DNA from: Sphingosinicella microcystinivorans
GTDB lineage: Bacteria; Pseudomonadota; Alphaproteobacteria; Sphingomonadales; Sphingomonadaceae
Reading direction: 5' to 3'
Length of the DNA stretch: 64,000 nucleotides
Assembly: GCF_027941835.1 (NCBI RefSeq)
Contig: NZ_CP116005.1
Span: forward strand, 2,309,501 to 2,373,500
The translations under genes were made by a program, and so were the position numbers. This document shows positions 2,117 to 18,418 of this stretch, one piece after another. Within the stretch, counting starts at the first letter, position 1. The number at the start of each line of letters is the position of its first letter. The notes beneath the pieces were generated by a model that searched no databases, was not told the DNA's origin, and saw only the letters and a program-made list of their open reading frames with translations.

Positions 2117-2133
2117 TTGGCACGGCGGTTGCA
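2117..2133 (+). promoter_or_regulatory. Sigma-54 promoter of the fliE operon
   Basis: TTGGCACGGCGGTTGCA matches the sigma-54 consensus YTGGCACGRNNNTTGCW at every defined position, with GG and GC 12 bases apart. The expected transcript start is near 2144. It must be served by a sigma-54 activator, and one is encoded at 17291-18418. Confidence 0.88.
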
Positions 2134-7740: not shown

Positions 7741-7756
7741 TGGCACGCTTATTGCT
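7741..7756 (+). promoter_or_regulatory. Sigma-54 promoter of fliK
   Basis: TGGCACGCTTATTGCT matches the -24/-12 sigma-54 consensus with correct 12-base GG-to-GC spacing. The predicted transcript start is near 7767. It lies in the short gap between fliJ and fliK and gives the second half of the operon its own sigma-54 start. Confidence 0.85.
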
Positions 7757-9855: not shown

Positions 9856-10845
9856 ATGAGTTCCGAACTCAATCTCAGCAAGGAAGAGATCGAAGCGCTG
9901 CAGGCGGGCATCGCCGACGGCAGCATCGCGTCCGGCGCGGGCGTGATGCCCGACGGCGTGATCGCGCCGTGGAGCTTCGACAGCGGCGACGAACGCGAGT
10001 TCGGCGATCTCCATGCGCTGCACCTGCTGAACGAACGCCTCGCGCGCGGGATGCGGCAGGTGTTCCAGCCGATGCTGCGCATCGCGCCCAAGGTGGATTG
10101 CGGGCTCACCTCGCTCGAATCCTTCGGCAGCTACGCGGAAGGTTTCGAGGATTTCCTCAGCCTCACCATCGTCCGCATGGAGCCGCTGCGCGGCCACGGC
10201 CTCGTGGTGATGAAGCCGGACCTGATCGGCGCGATCGTCGACGCTTACTACGGCGGCAGGGGCGAGCCGCCGACGATCCGCGCGAACGAGTTCACCGCCG
10301 CCGAGGACCGCGTGCTGCAATCGCTGCTCGGCCGCCTGTTCGCGCAGCTCGACGCGGCGTGGGCGGACATCTTCCACCTCCAGTTCAGCCGCATTTCGAG
10401 CGAGAGCCACCCGCAGTTCCTCTCGTTCCTCGAAAGCGCCGACATGGTGGTCGTCACGCGCTTCCTCGTGCACCTGCCGCGCGGCGGCACCTCGGCGGTC
10501 GACGTCGTCTATCCGCTGAACGCGCTGAAGCCGCTGATGCCGCTGCTGCGCCTGCGCGTCATCACCGAACAGAGCGAGACCGATCCCGGCTGGAAGGACC
10601 GCCTGAAGTCGGCGCTGCTCGACGTGGAGCTGCCGGTGCGCTCCATCCTTGCCGAGCCGACGCTGTCGCTGAGCGCCATCATGGCGCTGAAGGTCGGCGA
10701 CGTGGTGCCCATCCACGTACCCGAGGAGCTGCACATGCTCGTCGAGAAAACCACGTTCGGGATCGGTGCGCCAGGCGAGGCCAACGGCAACGCCGCGCTC
10801 AAGATCCGTTCCATCGCGCGTCCCCGCGCCAGCACCAACCGATAG
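9856..10845 (+). CDS. fliM: Flagellar motor switch protein FliM
   Basis: FliM is the central C-ring protein that binds phosphorylated CheY. The 329-residue sequence starts MSSELNLSKEEIEALQ, where LSKEEIEAL corresponds to the N-terminal CheY-binding motif (LSQxEIDALL-like). The middle domain follows (ERLARGMRQVFQPMLR) and a SpoA-like C-terminal domain lies near residues 245-320. It sits 7 bases after fliL and 18 bases before fliN. Confidence 0.96.
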   Translation: MSSELNLSKEEIEALQAGIADGSIASGAGVMPDGVIAPWSFDSGDEREFGDLHALHLLNERLARGMRQVFQPMLRIAPKVDCGLTSLESFGSYAEGFEDFLSLTIVRMEPLRGHGLVVMKPDLIGAIVDAYYGGRGEPPTIRANEFTAAEDRVLQSLLGRLFAQLDAAWADIFHLQFSRISSESHPQFLSFLESADMVVVTRFLVHLPRGGTSAVDVVYPLNALKPLMPLLRLRVITEQSETDPGWKDRLKSALLDVELPVRSILAEPTLSLSAIMALKVGDVVPIHVPEELHMLVEKTTFGIGAPGEANGNAALKIRSIARPRASTNR

Positions 10846-10863
10846 TTTCCCAAGGAGCCTCAC

Positions 10864-11184
10864 ATGAGCGAGACCGAAACCGCGAGCCCCGAAACCCCGA
10901 AGGCCGACGATCCGTGGAAGCCCGGATCGGCGAACCTCCGCCTGCTTCAGGAGATCGACGTCCGCCTCTCGGTCGAGGTCGGCACCAGCCAGGTGAAGAT
11001 CCGCGATCTCCTCAACCTCAACGAGGGCAGCGTCGTCGAGCTGGACCGCCCGGCGGGCGCGCCGCTCGACCTGTTCGCAAATGGCACACTCTTTGCGAGG
11101 GGCGAGGTGGTGACGGTCGGCGGACGCTTCGGCGTGCGGATTACCGACATCGTGGCACCGGGAGAACGCGTCAAGGACATCTGA
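10864..11184 (+). CDS. fliN: Flagellar motor switch protein FliN
   Basis: FliN is the lower C-ring protein, also a docking site for FliH. The 106-residue protein has a short variable N-terminus and a SpoA domain from about residue 30 (IDVRLSVEVGTSQVKIRDLL, then the conserved NGTLFARGEVV). AAGGAGCC precedes the ATG. Codons around the NGTLFAR segment (aat, aca, ttt, agg) are unlike the rest of the gene, apparently because they also spell a sigma-54 promoter (11082-11097). Confidence 0.95.
   Translation: MSETETASPETPKADDPWKPGSANLRLLQEIDVRLSVEVGTSQVKIRDLLNLNEGSVVELDRPAGAPLDLFANGTLFARGEVVTVGGRFGVRITDIVAPGERVKDI
11082..11097 (+). promoter_or_regulatory. Internal sigma-54 promoter inside fliN (for fliO-P-Q-R-flhB)
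   Basis: TGGCACACTCTTTGCG has the sigma-54 TGGCAC and TTGC boxes with the correct 12-base spacing. It lies within fliN, about 117 bases before the fliO start. The transcript start would be near 11108. Codon use across the site departs from the local G/C-ending habit, as expected if the promoter constrains the sequence. Confidence 0.65.
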
Positions 11185-11213
11185 CGCGTCAAGATTTTGA
11201 CGGGGGATGAACC

Positions 11214-11522
11214 TTGATCGGGGACTACGTGTTGCGGCTGACGATCATGCTGCCGCTGGTGTGCGGAATGATCGTCGCGGGGCTCTGGCTCGCGAAACGC
11301 TATAACCTCGGCGGCATCGGGTCCGGCCTCAAGTCCCGCGCCGCTACCCGCTCCGCCGCCCGGCTTTCCGAGACCGTGTTCCTGACCCCGGCGGTGAAGC
11401 TCGCCGTCGTCGATTTCGAAGGCAAAAGGTTGCTGCTCGCGGTGACGAAGCAGGGCGCGAACCTTCTCAGCGAGGTGCCCGCGATCAGCTTCACCATCGA
11501 GGATGAAGACGATGCGCGCTGA
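11214..11522 (+). CDS. fliO: Flagellar biosynthetic protein FliO
   Basis: FliO is a small membrane protein that assists assembly of the FliP export gate. The 102-residue protein has one N-terminal membrane helix (about residues 8-27, [20 protein letters not shown]) and a short cytoplasmic beta-rich domain ([20 protein letters not shown]). It appears to start with TTG 11214, 6 bases after GGGGGA. It overlaps fliP by 20 bases. FliO is poorly conserved, and the call also relies on position between fliN and fliP. Confidence 0.85.
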
Positions 11523-12306
11523 TCGCCTGATGCGCTTCGCCCCGTTCCTCGTCGCCGTGCTGCTCCTGTTCGCCGCGCCCGCGCTCGCGCAGACTGCGCC
11601 GCAGGGGCCGTCTCCCGTCCAGTTCGCCGCCGATGCGCTGAGCGGCTCTGCCGCGCCGGGCGCGCGCCAGCCGCTGTCGCTGTCGCTTCAGGTCCTCGTC
11701 CTGATGACATTGCTGTCGGTGCTGCCGGCGGTGATCCTGATGATGACGGCGTTCACGCGCATCATCATCGTGCTCTCGATCCTCCGGCAGGCGCTCGGCC
11801 TCGCGCAGACGCCGCCCAACCAGGTGCTGATCGGCCTGTCGCTGTTCCTCACCTTCTTCGTGATGAGCCCGGCGATCAGCGAGATCAACGATGTCGCCTT
11901 CAAGCCCTACGCCGCGAACGCCATGCCGATCGACACGGCGGTGGAGAAGGGCGGCACGGTGCTGCACCGCTTCATGATGGGGCAGACGCGGCAGAAGGAC
12001 ATCATCCTGTTCGCGAACCTCAAGAAGGACGGCGCCTACGAGAACGCGGAGGATGTGCCGTTCTCCGTGCTGCTTCCCGCGTTCGTCACCAGCGAGCTGA
12101 AGACGGCGTTCCAGATCGGCTTCCTCATCTTCCTGCCGTTCCTCGTCATCGACCTCGTCGTCGCCGCCGTGCTCATGTCGCTCGGCATGATGATGCTGTC
12201 GCCGACGCTGATCTCGCTTCCCTTCAAGCTGCTGCTGTTCGTTCTCGTCGACGGCTGGGCGCTCACCATGGGCTCGCTCGCCGGCAGCTTCTTCACGGCG
12301 ACCTGA
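11503..12306 (+). CDS. fliP: Flagellar biosynthetic protein FliP
   Basis: FliP is the core pentamer of the flagellar export gate. The 267-residue protein has a cleavable-type signal sequence (about residues 10-30, [16 protein letters not shown]), which is normal for FliP. Several membrane segments follow, with family motifs [18 protein letters not shown] and PPNQVLIGL, and [17 protein letters not shown] near the C-terminus. Start 11503 or the in-frame ATG at 11512 are both possible. It lies 10 bases before fliQ. Confidence 0.96.
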
Positions 12307-12316
12307 GGGGAGGACG

Positions 12317-12586
12317 ATGGACGCAGCCTATTTCACCGCAGCAGCCGGTCAGGCGCTCTGGATCCTCGTGCTGGTGGCCGCGCCGGTCATCATCCCGGCG
12401 CTCGCCATCGGCGTGCTGCTCGGCATGGTGCAGGCGGCGACCTCGATCAACGAGGCGACGCTCAGCTTCGTGCCGAAGCTGCTCGGCGTGCTCGTCTGCC
12501 TCGGCCTATTCGGTGGGCTGATGATGGGCCTGCTCGTCGATTTCACGCAGGACATCTTCTCCCGGATCCCGGACCTCGTCAGATGA
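12317..12586 (+). CDS. fliQ: Flagellar biosynthetic protein FliQ
   Basis: FliQ is the 89-residue export gate subunit with two membrane hairpin helices (about residues 15-40 and 52-75). The conserved stretch GMVQAATSINEATLSFVPK is clear. The stop overlaps the fliR start as ATGA, typical of the fliPQR block. Confidence 0.95.
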   Translation: MDAAYFTAAAGQALWILVLVAAPVIIPALAIGVLLGMVQAATSINEATLSFVPKLLGVLVCLGLFGGLMMGLLVDFTQDIFSRIPDLVR

Positions 12587-13362
12587 CCGGCATCCTGTCG
12601 GTCGGCATCGAGGCGTGGCTGATGCAGCTGATGTTCGCCATGCTGCGCATCGGCGGCACGCTCGTCGCCGCGCCGATCTTCTCCGCGATCGGCGTGCCCT
12701 TGCAGGTGCGCGTCGTGCTCGCGGGCGCGATCGGCGTGCTCGTGCTCTCCGTGTATCCGGTGGACGTGCCCCACGACATCCTGTCGCTTCAGGGGTTCGT
12801 CATCGTCGTGCAGGAATTGATGATCGGGCTTTCGGTCGGGTTCATCCTCCAGCTCGCCTTCGCCGCGCCGCTGCTCGCGGGCGAGTACATCGCGAACTCG
12901 ATCGGTCTCGGCTTCGCCAACATGGTCGATCCGCAGAGCGGCAAGAACAGCGCGGTCGTCGGCCAGTTCCTGATGATCCTGATGACGCTGCTGTTCCTCG
13001 CGCTGAACGGCCACCTGATCCTCGTGCGCCTGATCGTGGAAAGCTACGCCCTGATGCCGCTCGGCGGCGACTGGCTGACGCGCGACCATTTCTGGGGAAT
13101 CGTGAAGTTCGGCGGCTTCGTGTTCGCGGGCGGGCTCGCCATCGCGCTTCCCGTCGGCTTCTCGCTGTTCGCGCTCAACCTGCTCGTCGGCGTGCTGACG
13201 CGCACCGCGCCGCAGCTCAACATCTTCGCGGTCGGCCTGCCGCTGACGCTGATGACCGGCTTCGTCGTGCTCGCCATCGCCTTCCCGGCGATGAGCGATC
13301 TCATGCAGTCCGCTGCCGACACCGGCCTCGACGAGGCCAAGAGCTGGCTGGGAGGGCGCTGA
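12583..13362 (+). CDS. fliR: Flagellar biosynthetic protein FliR
   Basis: FliR is the single-copy export gate subunit that closes the FliP5Q4R1 spiral. The 259-residue, multi-pass protein (about six hydrophobic segments) contains the family stretch FAAPLLAGEYIANSIGLGFA and MVDPQSGKNSAVVGQF. It is translationally coupled to fliQ (ATGA) and ends one base before flhB starts. Confidence 0.95.
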   Translation: MTGILSVGIEAWLMQLMFAMLRIGGTLVAAPIFSAIGVPLQVRVVLAGAIGVLVLSVYPVDVPHDILSLQGFVIVVQELMIGLSVGFILQLAFAAPLLAGEYIANSIGLGFANMVDPQSGKNSAVVGQFLMILMTLLFLALNGHLILVRLIVESYALMPLGGDWLTRDHFWGIVKFGGFVFAGGLAIALPVGFSLFALNLLVGVLTRTAPQLNIFAVGLPLTLMTGFVVLAIAFPAMSDLMQSAADTGLDEAKSWLGGR

Positions 13363-13363
13363 C

Positions 13364-14491
13364 GTGTCCGACAAACCCGAAAAGGACCAGCAAACCGAGG
13401 CCCCGACCGAGAAGCGCAAGCGAGACGCGGCGGAAAAGGGCGACGTTCTCCGCTCGCGCGAGCTGACCACCGCGCTCGTCATGCTCGTCGGCGCGGCGTA
13501 TCTGGCGCTTGCCGGCGGCTGGATGGTCTCCAGCCTCGAACTCATGCTGAAGACCGCGCTCGCCGGGCTGAAGCACGGCGGCGTCAACTTCCAGCCCGCG
13601 GCGATGACGTGGGCGCTCGCCAAGGTGATCGCGTTCCCGCTTGCGGGCCTGCTGTTCACCTGCTTCACGGCCGCGCTCGTCAGCCAGGCGCTGCTCGGCA
13701 CGTTCCAGTTCAACATGACGCTGATCGCGCCGAAGGCGTCGCGCATGAACCCGATGAACTGGGTGAAGCGCACCTTCGGCCTTCAGGGCCTCACCGAACT
13801 CGGCAAGTCGATCCTGAAGGTCGTGCTCGTCGGCGCCATCGGCTGGTGGATGCTCTCGGACTATGCGCGCGAGATCGCCTCGCTCGGCACCGAGGACGTC
13901 GGCAACGCCATCGCGCACACCGGCCGTCTCGCCGCCGTTTTCCTGCTCGTCCTGTCGTTCGGGCTGGTGGTGGTGGCGGGCGTCGACATCCCGCTTCAGG
14001 CGATCCAGCTCATGCGCAAGCTCAAGATGTCGCGGCAGGAGATCAAGGACGAGCTGAAGCAGACCGAAGGCTCGCCCGAGGTGAAGATGCAGCTTCGCCG
14101 CCGCCAGCGCGAGGCGACGCGCAACAACATGCGTGCGGGCATGAAGCAGGCGAACGTGGTGCTGACGAACCCGACGCACTTCGCCGTCGCGCTCCGCTAC
14201 GACAAGACCCGCGATCTCGCACCGGTCGTCGTCGCCAAGGGCAAGGACCTCGTTGCCGAGGTGATTCGCGATCTCGCGGCGGAGAACGACGTGCCGGTGC
14301 TGTCCTATCCGCTGCTCGCCCGCGCGGTGTTCTTCACCTCGAAGATCGGGCAGGAAATCCGCGACGACCTCTATGTCGCCGTGGCGGGCGTGCTGGCGTT
14401 CGTGTTCAGCGTCGAGCGCGATCGCCTGACCCAGCCCGAGATCGAGGTGCCCGAGGGCGCGCGTTTCGACGAGACCGGGCGGCCGCTATGA
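13364..14491 (+). CDS. flhB: Flagellar biosynthetic protein FlhB
   Basis: FlhB is the substrate-specificity switch of the export gate. The 375-residue protein starts with GTG and has a charged N-terminus (EKDQQTEAPTEKRKRDAAEKGDV). Four membrane segments and the cytoplasmic domain follow, with the self-cleavage motif NPTH at residues 269-272 (NPTHFAVALRYD). All elements needed for FlhB autocleavage are present. It is the last export gate gene of this operon, and fliD follows after 109 bases. Confidence 0.97.
   Translation: MSDKPEKDQQTEAPTEKRKRDAAEKGDVLRSRELTTALVMLVGAAYLALAGGWMVSSLELMLKTALAGLKHGGVNFQPAAMTWALAKVIAFPLAGLLFTCFTAALVSQALLGTFQFNMTLIAPKASRMNPMNWVKRTFGLQGLTELGKSILKVVLVGAIGWWMLSDYAREIASLGTEDVGNAIAHTGRLAAVFLLVLSFGLVVVAGVDIPLQAIQLMRKLKMSRQEIKDELKQTEGSPEVKMQLRRRQREATRNNMRAGMKQANVVLTNPTHFAVALRYDKTRDLAPVVVAKGKDLVAEVIRDLAAENDVPVLSYPLLARAVFFTSKIGQEIRDDLYVAVAGVLAFVFSVERDRLTQPEIEVPEGARFDETGRPL

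Positions 14492-17290: not shown

Positions 17291-18418
<1,128 letters not shown>

What the first reader, a model, noticed from the sequence alone, without database searches (positions are those of the whole stretch)
11082..11100. Sigma-54 promoter hidden inside fliN with rare codons
TGGCACACTCTTTGCG encodes the conserved FliN NGTLFA motif. Codons across it (gca, aat, aca, ttt, agg) are unusual for this G/C-ending gene and are exactly those needed to spell the -24/-12 boxes. This points to a dual-use sequence driving fliOPQR-flhB.
Basis: partly seen in the sequence, partly recalled or inferred. Interest (0 to 1): 0.7.

Follow-up and report, generated by a model that had tools for sequence, protein, structure and literature searches.

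The report
Flagellar promoter written in protein codons
A stretch of the fliN gene, which encodes a flagellar motor protein, also appears to spell a switch (a sigma-54 promoter) for the next flagellar genes, and a second group of related bacteria seems to use the same protein codons this way; this is inferred from sequence and has not been tested in the lab.

Summary
The finding holds up. TGGCACACTCTTTGC lies at 11082-11096 (+) inside fliN, over codons A-N-G-T-L-F-A-R. Five of these eight codons are rare here; codon usage alone gives the exact -24/-12 core with P = 0.0016. Of the five, only AAT and TTT are needed for the core.

In five Sphingosinicella genomes the core sits in the longest run of identical codons (19, 11062-11118) and in the best 18-codon windows of 3165 over 16 flagellar genes. 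A FleQ-like dyad, GTCAAGATTTTGAC, follows the fliN stop (11188-11201), and a FleQ-like activator is encoded at 17291-18418.

In 23 of 25 fliN loci of the NGTM type (SAR116-like and other marine contigs) a dyad lies at the same place, followed in 21 by an ordinary intergenic sigma-54 promoter before the next gene. Sphingosinicella and one neighbour lack that promoter (0 of 8 loci) and have the one in fliN. A second sphingomonad clade has the exact core at the same FliN codons in 12 of 16 loci.

Best reading: a real intragenic sigma-54 promoter for fliOPQR-flhB, activated from a downstream site. Intragenic sigma-54 promoters are known, so this is a new member. No transcript was seen.

The parts
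11082..11096 (+). sigma-54 core TGGCAC-N5-TTGC inside fliN (-24 GG at 11083-11084, -12 GC at 11095-11096)
   Evidence: kept in 7 of 7 loci of Sphingosinicella plus G021
11062..11118 (+). run of 19 codons identical in five Sphingosinicella genomes, covering the core and the expected start site
   Evidence: longest run in 16 flagellar genes; 49.6% of comparable codons are identical overall
11108..11108 (+). expected transcription start, about 12 bases after the -12 GC (inferred, not mapped)
   Evidence: established sigma-54 spacing, recalled
10864..11184 (+). fliN, host gene of the promoter
   Evidence: Pfam FliMN_C E 5.5e-26
11188..11201 (+). FleQ-like dyad GTCAAGATTTTGAC (GTCA-N6-TGAC), 91 bases between it and the -12 GC, 3 bases after the fliN stop
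   Evidence: consensus GTCaNTAAAtTGAC seen in PMC6120874
11214..11522 (+). fliO, TTG start, first gene after the promoter
   Evidence: Pfam FliO E 1.1e-9; NCBIfam FliO 37.2 bits, under its cut-off of 55.25
11503..12306 (+). fliP, the only FliP gene found in the genome
   Evidence: Pfam FliP E 1e-78; one match in the genome
12317..12586 (+). fliQ
   Evidence: Pfam Bac_export_3 E 5.4e-24
12583..13362 (+). fliR
   Evidence: Pfam Bac_export_1 E 2.6e-62
13364..14491 (+). flhB
   Evidence: Pfam Bac_export_2 E 1.7e-108
2118..2132 (+). exact sigma-54 core before fliE, with upstream dyads at 2039-2052 and 2072-2085
   Evidence: conserved in Sphingosinicella
7741..7755 (+). exact sigma-54 core before fliK; no GTC-N8-GAC dyad found near it
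17291..18418 (-). FleQ-like sigma-54 activator (AAA+ and Fis-type HTH, no N-terminal domain): candidate activator
   Evidence: Pfam Sigma54_activat E 1e-73; best solved match FleQ 8p53 E 2.9e-102 over residues 18-370

Best explanation
The 3' part of fliN carries a functional sigma-54 promoter that is also protein code. RNA polymerase with sigma-54 binds TGGCACACTCTTTGC and starts near 11108, giving an internal transcript for fliO-fliP-fliQ-fliR-flhB inside a longer operon. A FleQ-type activator, most likely the one encoded at 17291-18418, binds the dyad at 11188-11201 about 90 bases downstream of the promoter and opens the complex by looping back. Selection holds the rare AAT and TTT codons because they complete the -24 and -12 boxes; GG and GC at the right spacing are already dictated by the conserved peptide N-G-T-x-x-A. 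Shown by comparison: codon rarity, synonymous conservation, recurrence at the same codons, conserved dyad. Inferred: sigma-54 binding, start site, activator identity, looping.
For: (1) The core is improbable from codon usage, P 0.0016. (2) 11062-11118 is the longest run of identical codons (19) in 16 flagellar genes of five genomes, and the two windows with 18 of 18 identical codons, of 3165, are both here. (3) The genome has rpoN, and exact cores lie before fliE and fliK in the window and at flgB, an SLT-like gene and in flhA upstream of the window. (4) GTCAN6TGAC follows the fliN stop in 7 of 7 clade loci and, exact, in 0 of the other 135 family loci. (5) In 23 of 25 NGTM-type fliN loci the dyad sits in the same place and 21 have a strong intergenic sigma-54 site after it; 0 of 8 Sphingosinicella/G021 loci do, so the fliN core is the only strong candidate partner of their dyad. 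(6) In 78 family loci encoding NGTx[FVILM]A, T at the Asn third base and T at the hydrophobic third base go together: 20 both, 9 first only, 1 second only, 48 neither; by genus 7, 3, 0, 17, Fisher p 1.4e-4 (printed before that script failed). T-ending codons elsewhere in fliN are about equal: 0.146 with the exact core, 0.128 without. (7) A second clade keeps TGGCACGCTGGTTGC with eight identical codons in six species of g2 (permutation p 0.0037). (8) In Pseudomonas putida a FleQ-dependent promoter inside flhA drives flhF (PMC6424431, abstract and passages).
Against: No transcript, footprint or reporter. Adding G021 to the five genomes, 4 of 8 codons of the motif vary (p 0.28), although the exact core survives every change. 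The dyad motif is common: GTCRN6YGAC has 706 sites in the genome, against 255 for the reversed control, and one GTCAN6TGAC in this window is expected by chance (mean 0.61); the enrichment near promoters (6 of 39 within 130 bp of 7 sites, 0.85 expected, p 1.9e-4) was tested after the motif was seen at those sites. Three of those seven promoters have no such dyad, and the second clade has none after fliN except one inexact match in 16. The leader RNA folds somewhat better than shuffles (z -2.5), so an RNA role cannot be excluded. Upstream promoters could transcribe fliO-flhB by read-through.
Confidence: 0.78

Rival explanations
1. Coincidence of a protein motif: N-G-T-L-F-A always encodes GG-N10-GC, and a few rare codons make it look like a promoter without function; fliO-flhB are read from the fliK promoter.
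For: GG-N10-GC is present at the motif in 80 of 80 named loci (found partly through this motif) and in 125 of 142 family loci. Exact cores also appear in gammaproteobacterial loci L081 and L092, with no dyad there.
Against: Synonymous conservation, the joint choice of two rare T-ending codons, the dyad and two clades with the exact core.
Confidence: 0.12
2. The conservation serves the mRNA or translation: slow codons for FliN folding, or a leader hairpin controlling fliO, which starts with TTG 29 bases after the fliN stop.
For: Leader 11108-11230 folds with z -2.5; conservation continues to the stop and through the dyad.
Against: No Rfam family reached its threshold in 10600-11700. At flgB and fliE the like dyads lie upstream of the promoters and in the NGTM loci upstream of an intergenic promoter, so they are not in those transcripts. 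Slow codons do not explain an exact -24/-12 spelling with different codons in the second clade.
Confidence: 0.07
3. A real sigma-54 promoter in fliN, but activated by another protein or from upstream; the dyad after fliN belongs to something else.
For: The genome has 11 matches to the sigma-54 activator domain, 8 of them strong. The second clade has the core without the dyad.
Against: The activator in this cluster is the FleQ-like one, and dyads of the GTC-N8-GAC type also lie at flgB, fliE and the SLT-like gene.
Confidence: 0.25

Closest known systems
PflhF inside flhA of Pseudomonas putida (PMC6424431; abstract and passages seen)
   Same: Sigma-54 promoter inside the 3' part of a flagellar export gene, drives the next flagellar genes within an operon, FleQ-dependent in reporter assays
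   Different: Different host gene and codons; core TGGAACAgattTTGCT is weaker; tested by experiment there, not here
Intragenic sigma-54 promoters of Escherichia coli (PMC4591121; passages seen)
   Same: Sense-oriented sigma-54 sites inside genes; three were shown there to drive the downstream gene; many are conserved
   Different: Those three leaders are 360-760 nt, here about 106 nt; not flagellar; codon-level selection and recurrence in separate lineages were not what I saw discussed in those passages
FleQ sites downstream of sigma-54 promoters in Pseudomonas aeruginosa (Jyot 2002; only its title seen, in the reference list of PMC6120874)
   Same: FleQ-type dyad downstream of a flagellar sigma-54 promoter
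   Different: Here the promoter itself is inside a coding sequence
Intergenic fliN-fliO promoter of SAR116-like loci (this work)
   Same: Dyad 3-42 bases after the fliN stop, sigma-54 site, fliP gene downstream
   Different: There the promoter follows the dyad in a gap between genes; here it precedes the dyad and lies in fliN

Membership tests
sigma-54 (RpoN) promoter | GG and GC ten bases apart with the TGGCAC-N5-TTGC consensus | tested here: met
   10 of 10 specified bases
sigma-54 (RpoN) promoter | rpoN present in the genome | tested here: met
   one match, E 1.1e-67
sigma-54 (RpoN) promoter | transcription start about 12 bases after the GC, dependent on RpoN | not testable with these tools
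   no transcript data
intragenic sigma-54 promoter | core inside a coding sequence, same direction as the next gene | tested here: met
   in fliN, fliO starts at 11214 on the same strand
intragenic sigma-54 promoter | conservation beyond what the protein requires | tested here: met
   in five genomes; with G021 added 4 of 8 codons vary although the core stays
FleQ-type activation site | dyad like GTCaNTAAAtTGAC | tested here: met
   GTCAAGATTTTGAC: outer GTCA and TGAC match, the inner six bases match only in part
FleQ-type activation site | bound by a FleQ protein | not testable with these tools
   a FleQ-like protein is encoded, binding unknown
FleQ | AAA+ domain and HTH alike to Pseudomonas aeruginosa FleQ | tested here: met
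   8p53 E 2.9e-102, HTH region aligned
FleQ | N-terminal domain before AAA+ (about 140 residues in 8p53) | tested here: not met
   query residue 18 aligns with FleQ residue 146; so FleQ-like, not filed as FleQ

The most novel reading that the evidence does not exclude
A peptide grammar for hidden promoters. In one reading frame the sigma-54 consensus TGGCAC-N5-TTGC reads x-G-T-x-[F/I/V/L]-A, so conserved proteins with that string already hold GG-N10-GC and need two synonymous changes to become promoters. Flagellar genomes have used this more than once: in fliN of Sphingosinicella/G021, in fliN of a second sphingomonad clade, and in flhA of this same genome (DGTTFA, GAT GGC ACG ACA TTT GCA). 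In Sphingosinicella the change accompanied loss of an older intergenic promoter, so that the promoter hopped across its enhancer into the neighbouring gene while the enhancer stayed in place.
Probability: 0.4. Interest if true: 0.72.

Novelty: new member of a known kind. Interest (0 to 1): 0.55.

Why it matters
If true, a core motor gene and its downstream export genes share letters, so codon choice in fliN is set by transcription as well as by the protein. It gives a clean test case of dual-coding DNA, because two synonymous changes should silence the promoter without changing FliN. It would also show how a promoter can move into a gene when its activator can work from either side, and it gives a rule (G-T-x-aliphatic or aromatic-A in frame) for finding other hidden sigma-54 promoters.

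Tried and rejected
Plain pattern counting was uninformative: 53 hits against 58.2 expected with 2 mismatches, 21 exact hits against 14 for the reversed pattern in the genome. rpoN presence was tried as a natural control and is useless, since 292 of 298 family genomes have it. I first read the dyad as proof of promoter relocation because the closest FliN matches outside the genus were SAR116-like; the FliP tree and a nine-protein tree instead put Sphingosinicella with the Sphingomonadaceae, with the SAR116-like group in the sister clade. Shared ancestry of the dyad is therefore possible but not shown. An RNA element was checked and is not favoured. Searches for an earlier report of a promoter inside fliN (listings only, open-licence papers) showed none in the rows listed; older Rhodobacter sphaeroides work on flagellar sigma-54 promoters was not held, so an earlier report there cannot be excluded. 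The sigma-54 weight table used is my own, recalled from the consensus. The NGTM group was defined. Not fetched: the FliN hit of G297 (140 of the 141 family hits were used, plus two weaker hits, L040 and L041, 142 loci in all). L024 and L100 are the same genome, and L053 is very close to the window's species.

Full report
What is there. The core TGGCAC-N5-TTGC occupies 11082-11096 on the + strand, in frame in fliN, over ANGTLFAR. fliO starts at 11214 with TTG, followed by fliP, fliQ, fliR and flhB; fliP is the only FliP gene found in the genome. The genome belongs with Sphingosinicella: G004 of the same genus matches S. microcystinivorans DSM 19791 (L100).

Chance. The pattern alone is not remarkable. 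Its place is: 6 of the 21 exact genome matches lie in 21.3 kb of the flagellar cluster, before flgB, before an SLT-like gene (weak Pfam match, under its cut-off), in flhA before flhF, before fliE, before fliK, and in fliN. Given the FliN peptide and local codon use, the exact core has P 0.0016; five of eight codons are rare, seen in only 2 of 5720 windows of other genes. Only AAT and TTT of these serve the core.

Conservation. In five Sphingosinicella genomes, 1831 of 3688 comparable codons in 16 flagellar genes are identical. The run 11062-11118 has 19 identical codons, the longest of all; the next are 15 (fliE) and 14 (fliP), and the two 18-codon windows without any change, of 3165, are here. 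A smaller test gives 0 of 8 motif codons variable, p 0.009; when G021 is added 4 of 8 vary, p 0.28, but GCA to GCG, TTT to ATT, GCG to GCA and AGG to AAG all leave the core intact.

Relatives in the family. FliN hits at E 1e-17 were found in 141 of 298 family genomes; 140 of these plus two weaker ones were read (142 loci). Of these, 78 encode NGTx[FVILM]A and 20 have the exact core, in 8 of 51 genera. They fall into two clades and a singleton in a FliM/FliN tree: Sphingosinicella plus G021 (7 of 7), a second clade of g2, g73, g66, g81, g110 and g24 (12 of 16; support 0.998), and L156 of g111. Among the 119 remaining loci only that singleton has it. The tree is a quick FastTree run and not all 142 loci had FliM (104 did). 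Two gains, or one gain with many losses, both fit. The second clade reads GTAAATGGCACGCTGGTTGCAAGA in g2, all eight codons identical in six species. AAT and an NTT codon go together far more than by chance even counted by genus (7, 3, 0, 17; p 1.4e-4), and general use of T-ending codons in fliN hardly differs (0.146 against 0.128).

The dyad. GTCAAGATTTTGAC begins 3 bases after the fliN stop. It resembles the Pseudomonas FleQ consensus GTCaNTAAAtTGAC (PMC6120874, passages). That paper also warns that the motif is unreliable genome-wide, and the same holds here: 706 GTCRN6YGAC sites in the genome and one exact GTCAN6TGAC expected by chance in the window (0.61). What counts is position. Seven of 7 clade loci have it exactly there; 0 of the other 135 family loci do, and 6 of them have a one-mismatch version. 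Related GTC-N8-GAC dyads lie upstream of flgB (two) and fliE (two) and downstream of the SLT-like gene's promoter, but none was found at fliK, flgA or the flhA-internal site.

The neighbours' version. Among 110 loci compared (30, 80), 25 encode NGTM. Of these, 23 have the dyad (up to one mismatch) within 60 bases after fliN, and 21 have a strong sigma-54 site beyond it and before the next gene. The other 77 have 2 dyads and 1 strong site; the eight Sphingosinicella/G021 loci (seven genomes or fewer, as L024 and L100 are one genome) have 8 dyads and no intergenic site. Three NGTM loci with the dyad (L056, L057, L068) also have the exact fliN core. In a nine-protein tree the NGTM loci and the Sphingomonadaceae are in sister clades, and Sphingosinicella plus G021 plus L041 branch early in theirs (support 0.99; the join to the other sphingomonads 0.77). 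So an ancestral dyad is plausible and promoter relocation is the boldest reading, but convergence is not excluded.

Mechanism. Sigma-54 needs an activator. The cluster encodes one, 375 residues, closest among solved structures to FleQ over AAA+ and HTH (8p53 E 2.9e-102) but without its N-terminal domain; it is one of 11 matches to the activator domain in the genome. I propose it binds the dyad about 90 bases downstream of the -12 GC and loops back. Downstream FleQ sites and an intragenic FleQ-dependent promoter (PflhF in flhA of P. putida) are known, so each step has precedent; none was shown here.

Second case in the same genome. In flhA (L133 13459-15555) the core TGGCACGACATTTGC spans D-G-T-T-F-A in the same frame, 178 bases before flhF, kept in all five genomes. 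The codons around it are not exceptionally conserved: its best 18-codon window has 16 identical, like five others in flhA. The peptide string G-T-x-F-A is shared with FliN, which is why I propose the grammar in the novel case.

Verdict. A sound observation with one overstatement, a supported interpretation, and a likely functional but known kind of element.

Noticed in passing
L133:15387-15401 (genome 2305387-2305401, upstream of the window): A second exact sigma-54 core inside a coding sequence: in flhA, over D-G-T-T-F-A, 178 bases before flhF, kept in five Sphingosinicella genomes.
   Followed up: partly
window 17291-18418 (-): The FleQ-like activator starts directly at its AAA+ domain; the N-terminal domain of Pseudomonas FleQ is missing.
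   Followed up: partly
L133:16536-17426: MinD/ParA-like ATPase gene overlapping the end of flhF by a few bases, a candidate FleN/FlhG.
   Followed up: no
genome 3807979-3808212 and 1500579-1500809: Two further FliN-like matches, the second with an in-frame TAG, although only one FliP gene was found in the genome.
   Followed up: no
L241 and L251 (genus g101): A perfect sigma-54-like site TGGCACGATCATTGC 363 bases before the fliN stop in two loci of one genus, possibly another promoter placed in or near fliM-fliN.
   Followed up: no
L212, L035, L211, L217, L219 after the fliN stop: In genus g2 the fliN-fliO gap of about 75 bases holds GC-rich inverted repeats, unlike the overlapping genes of its relatives.
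   Followed up: no
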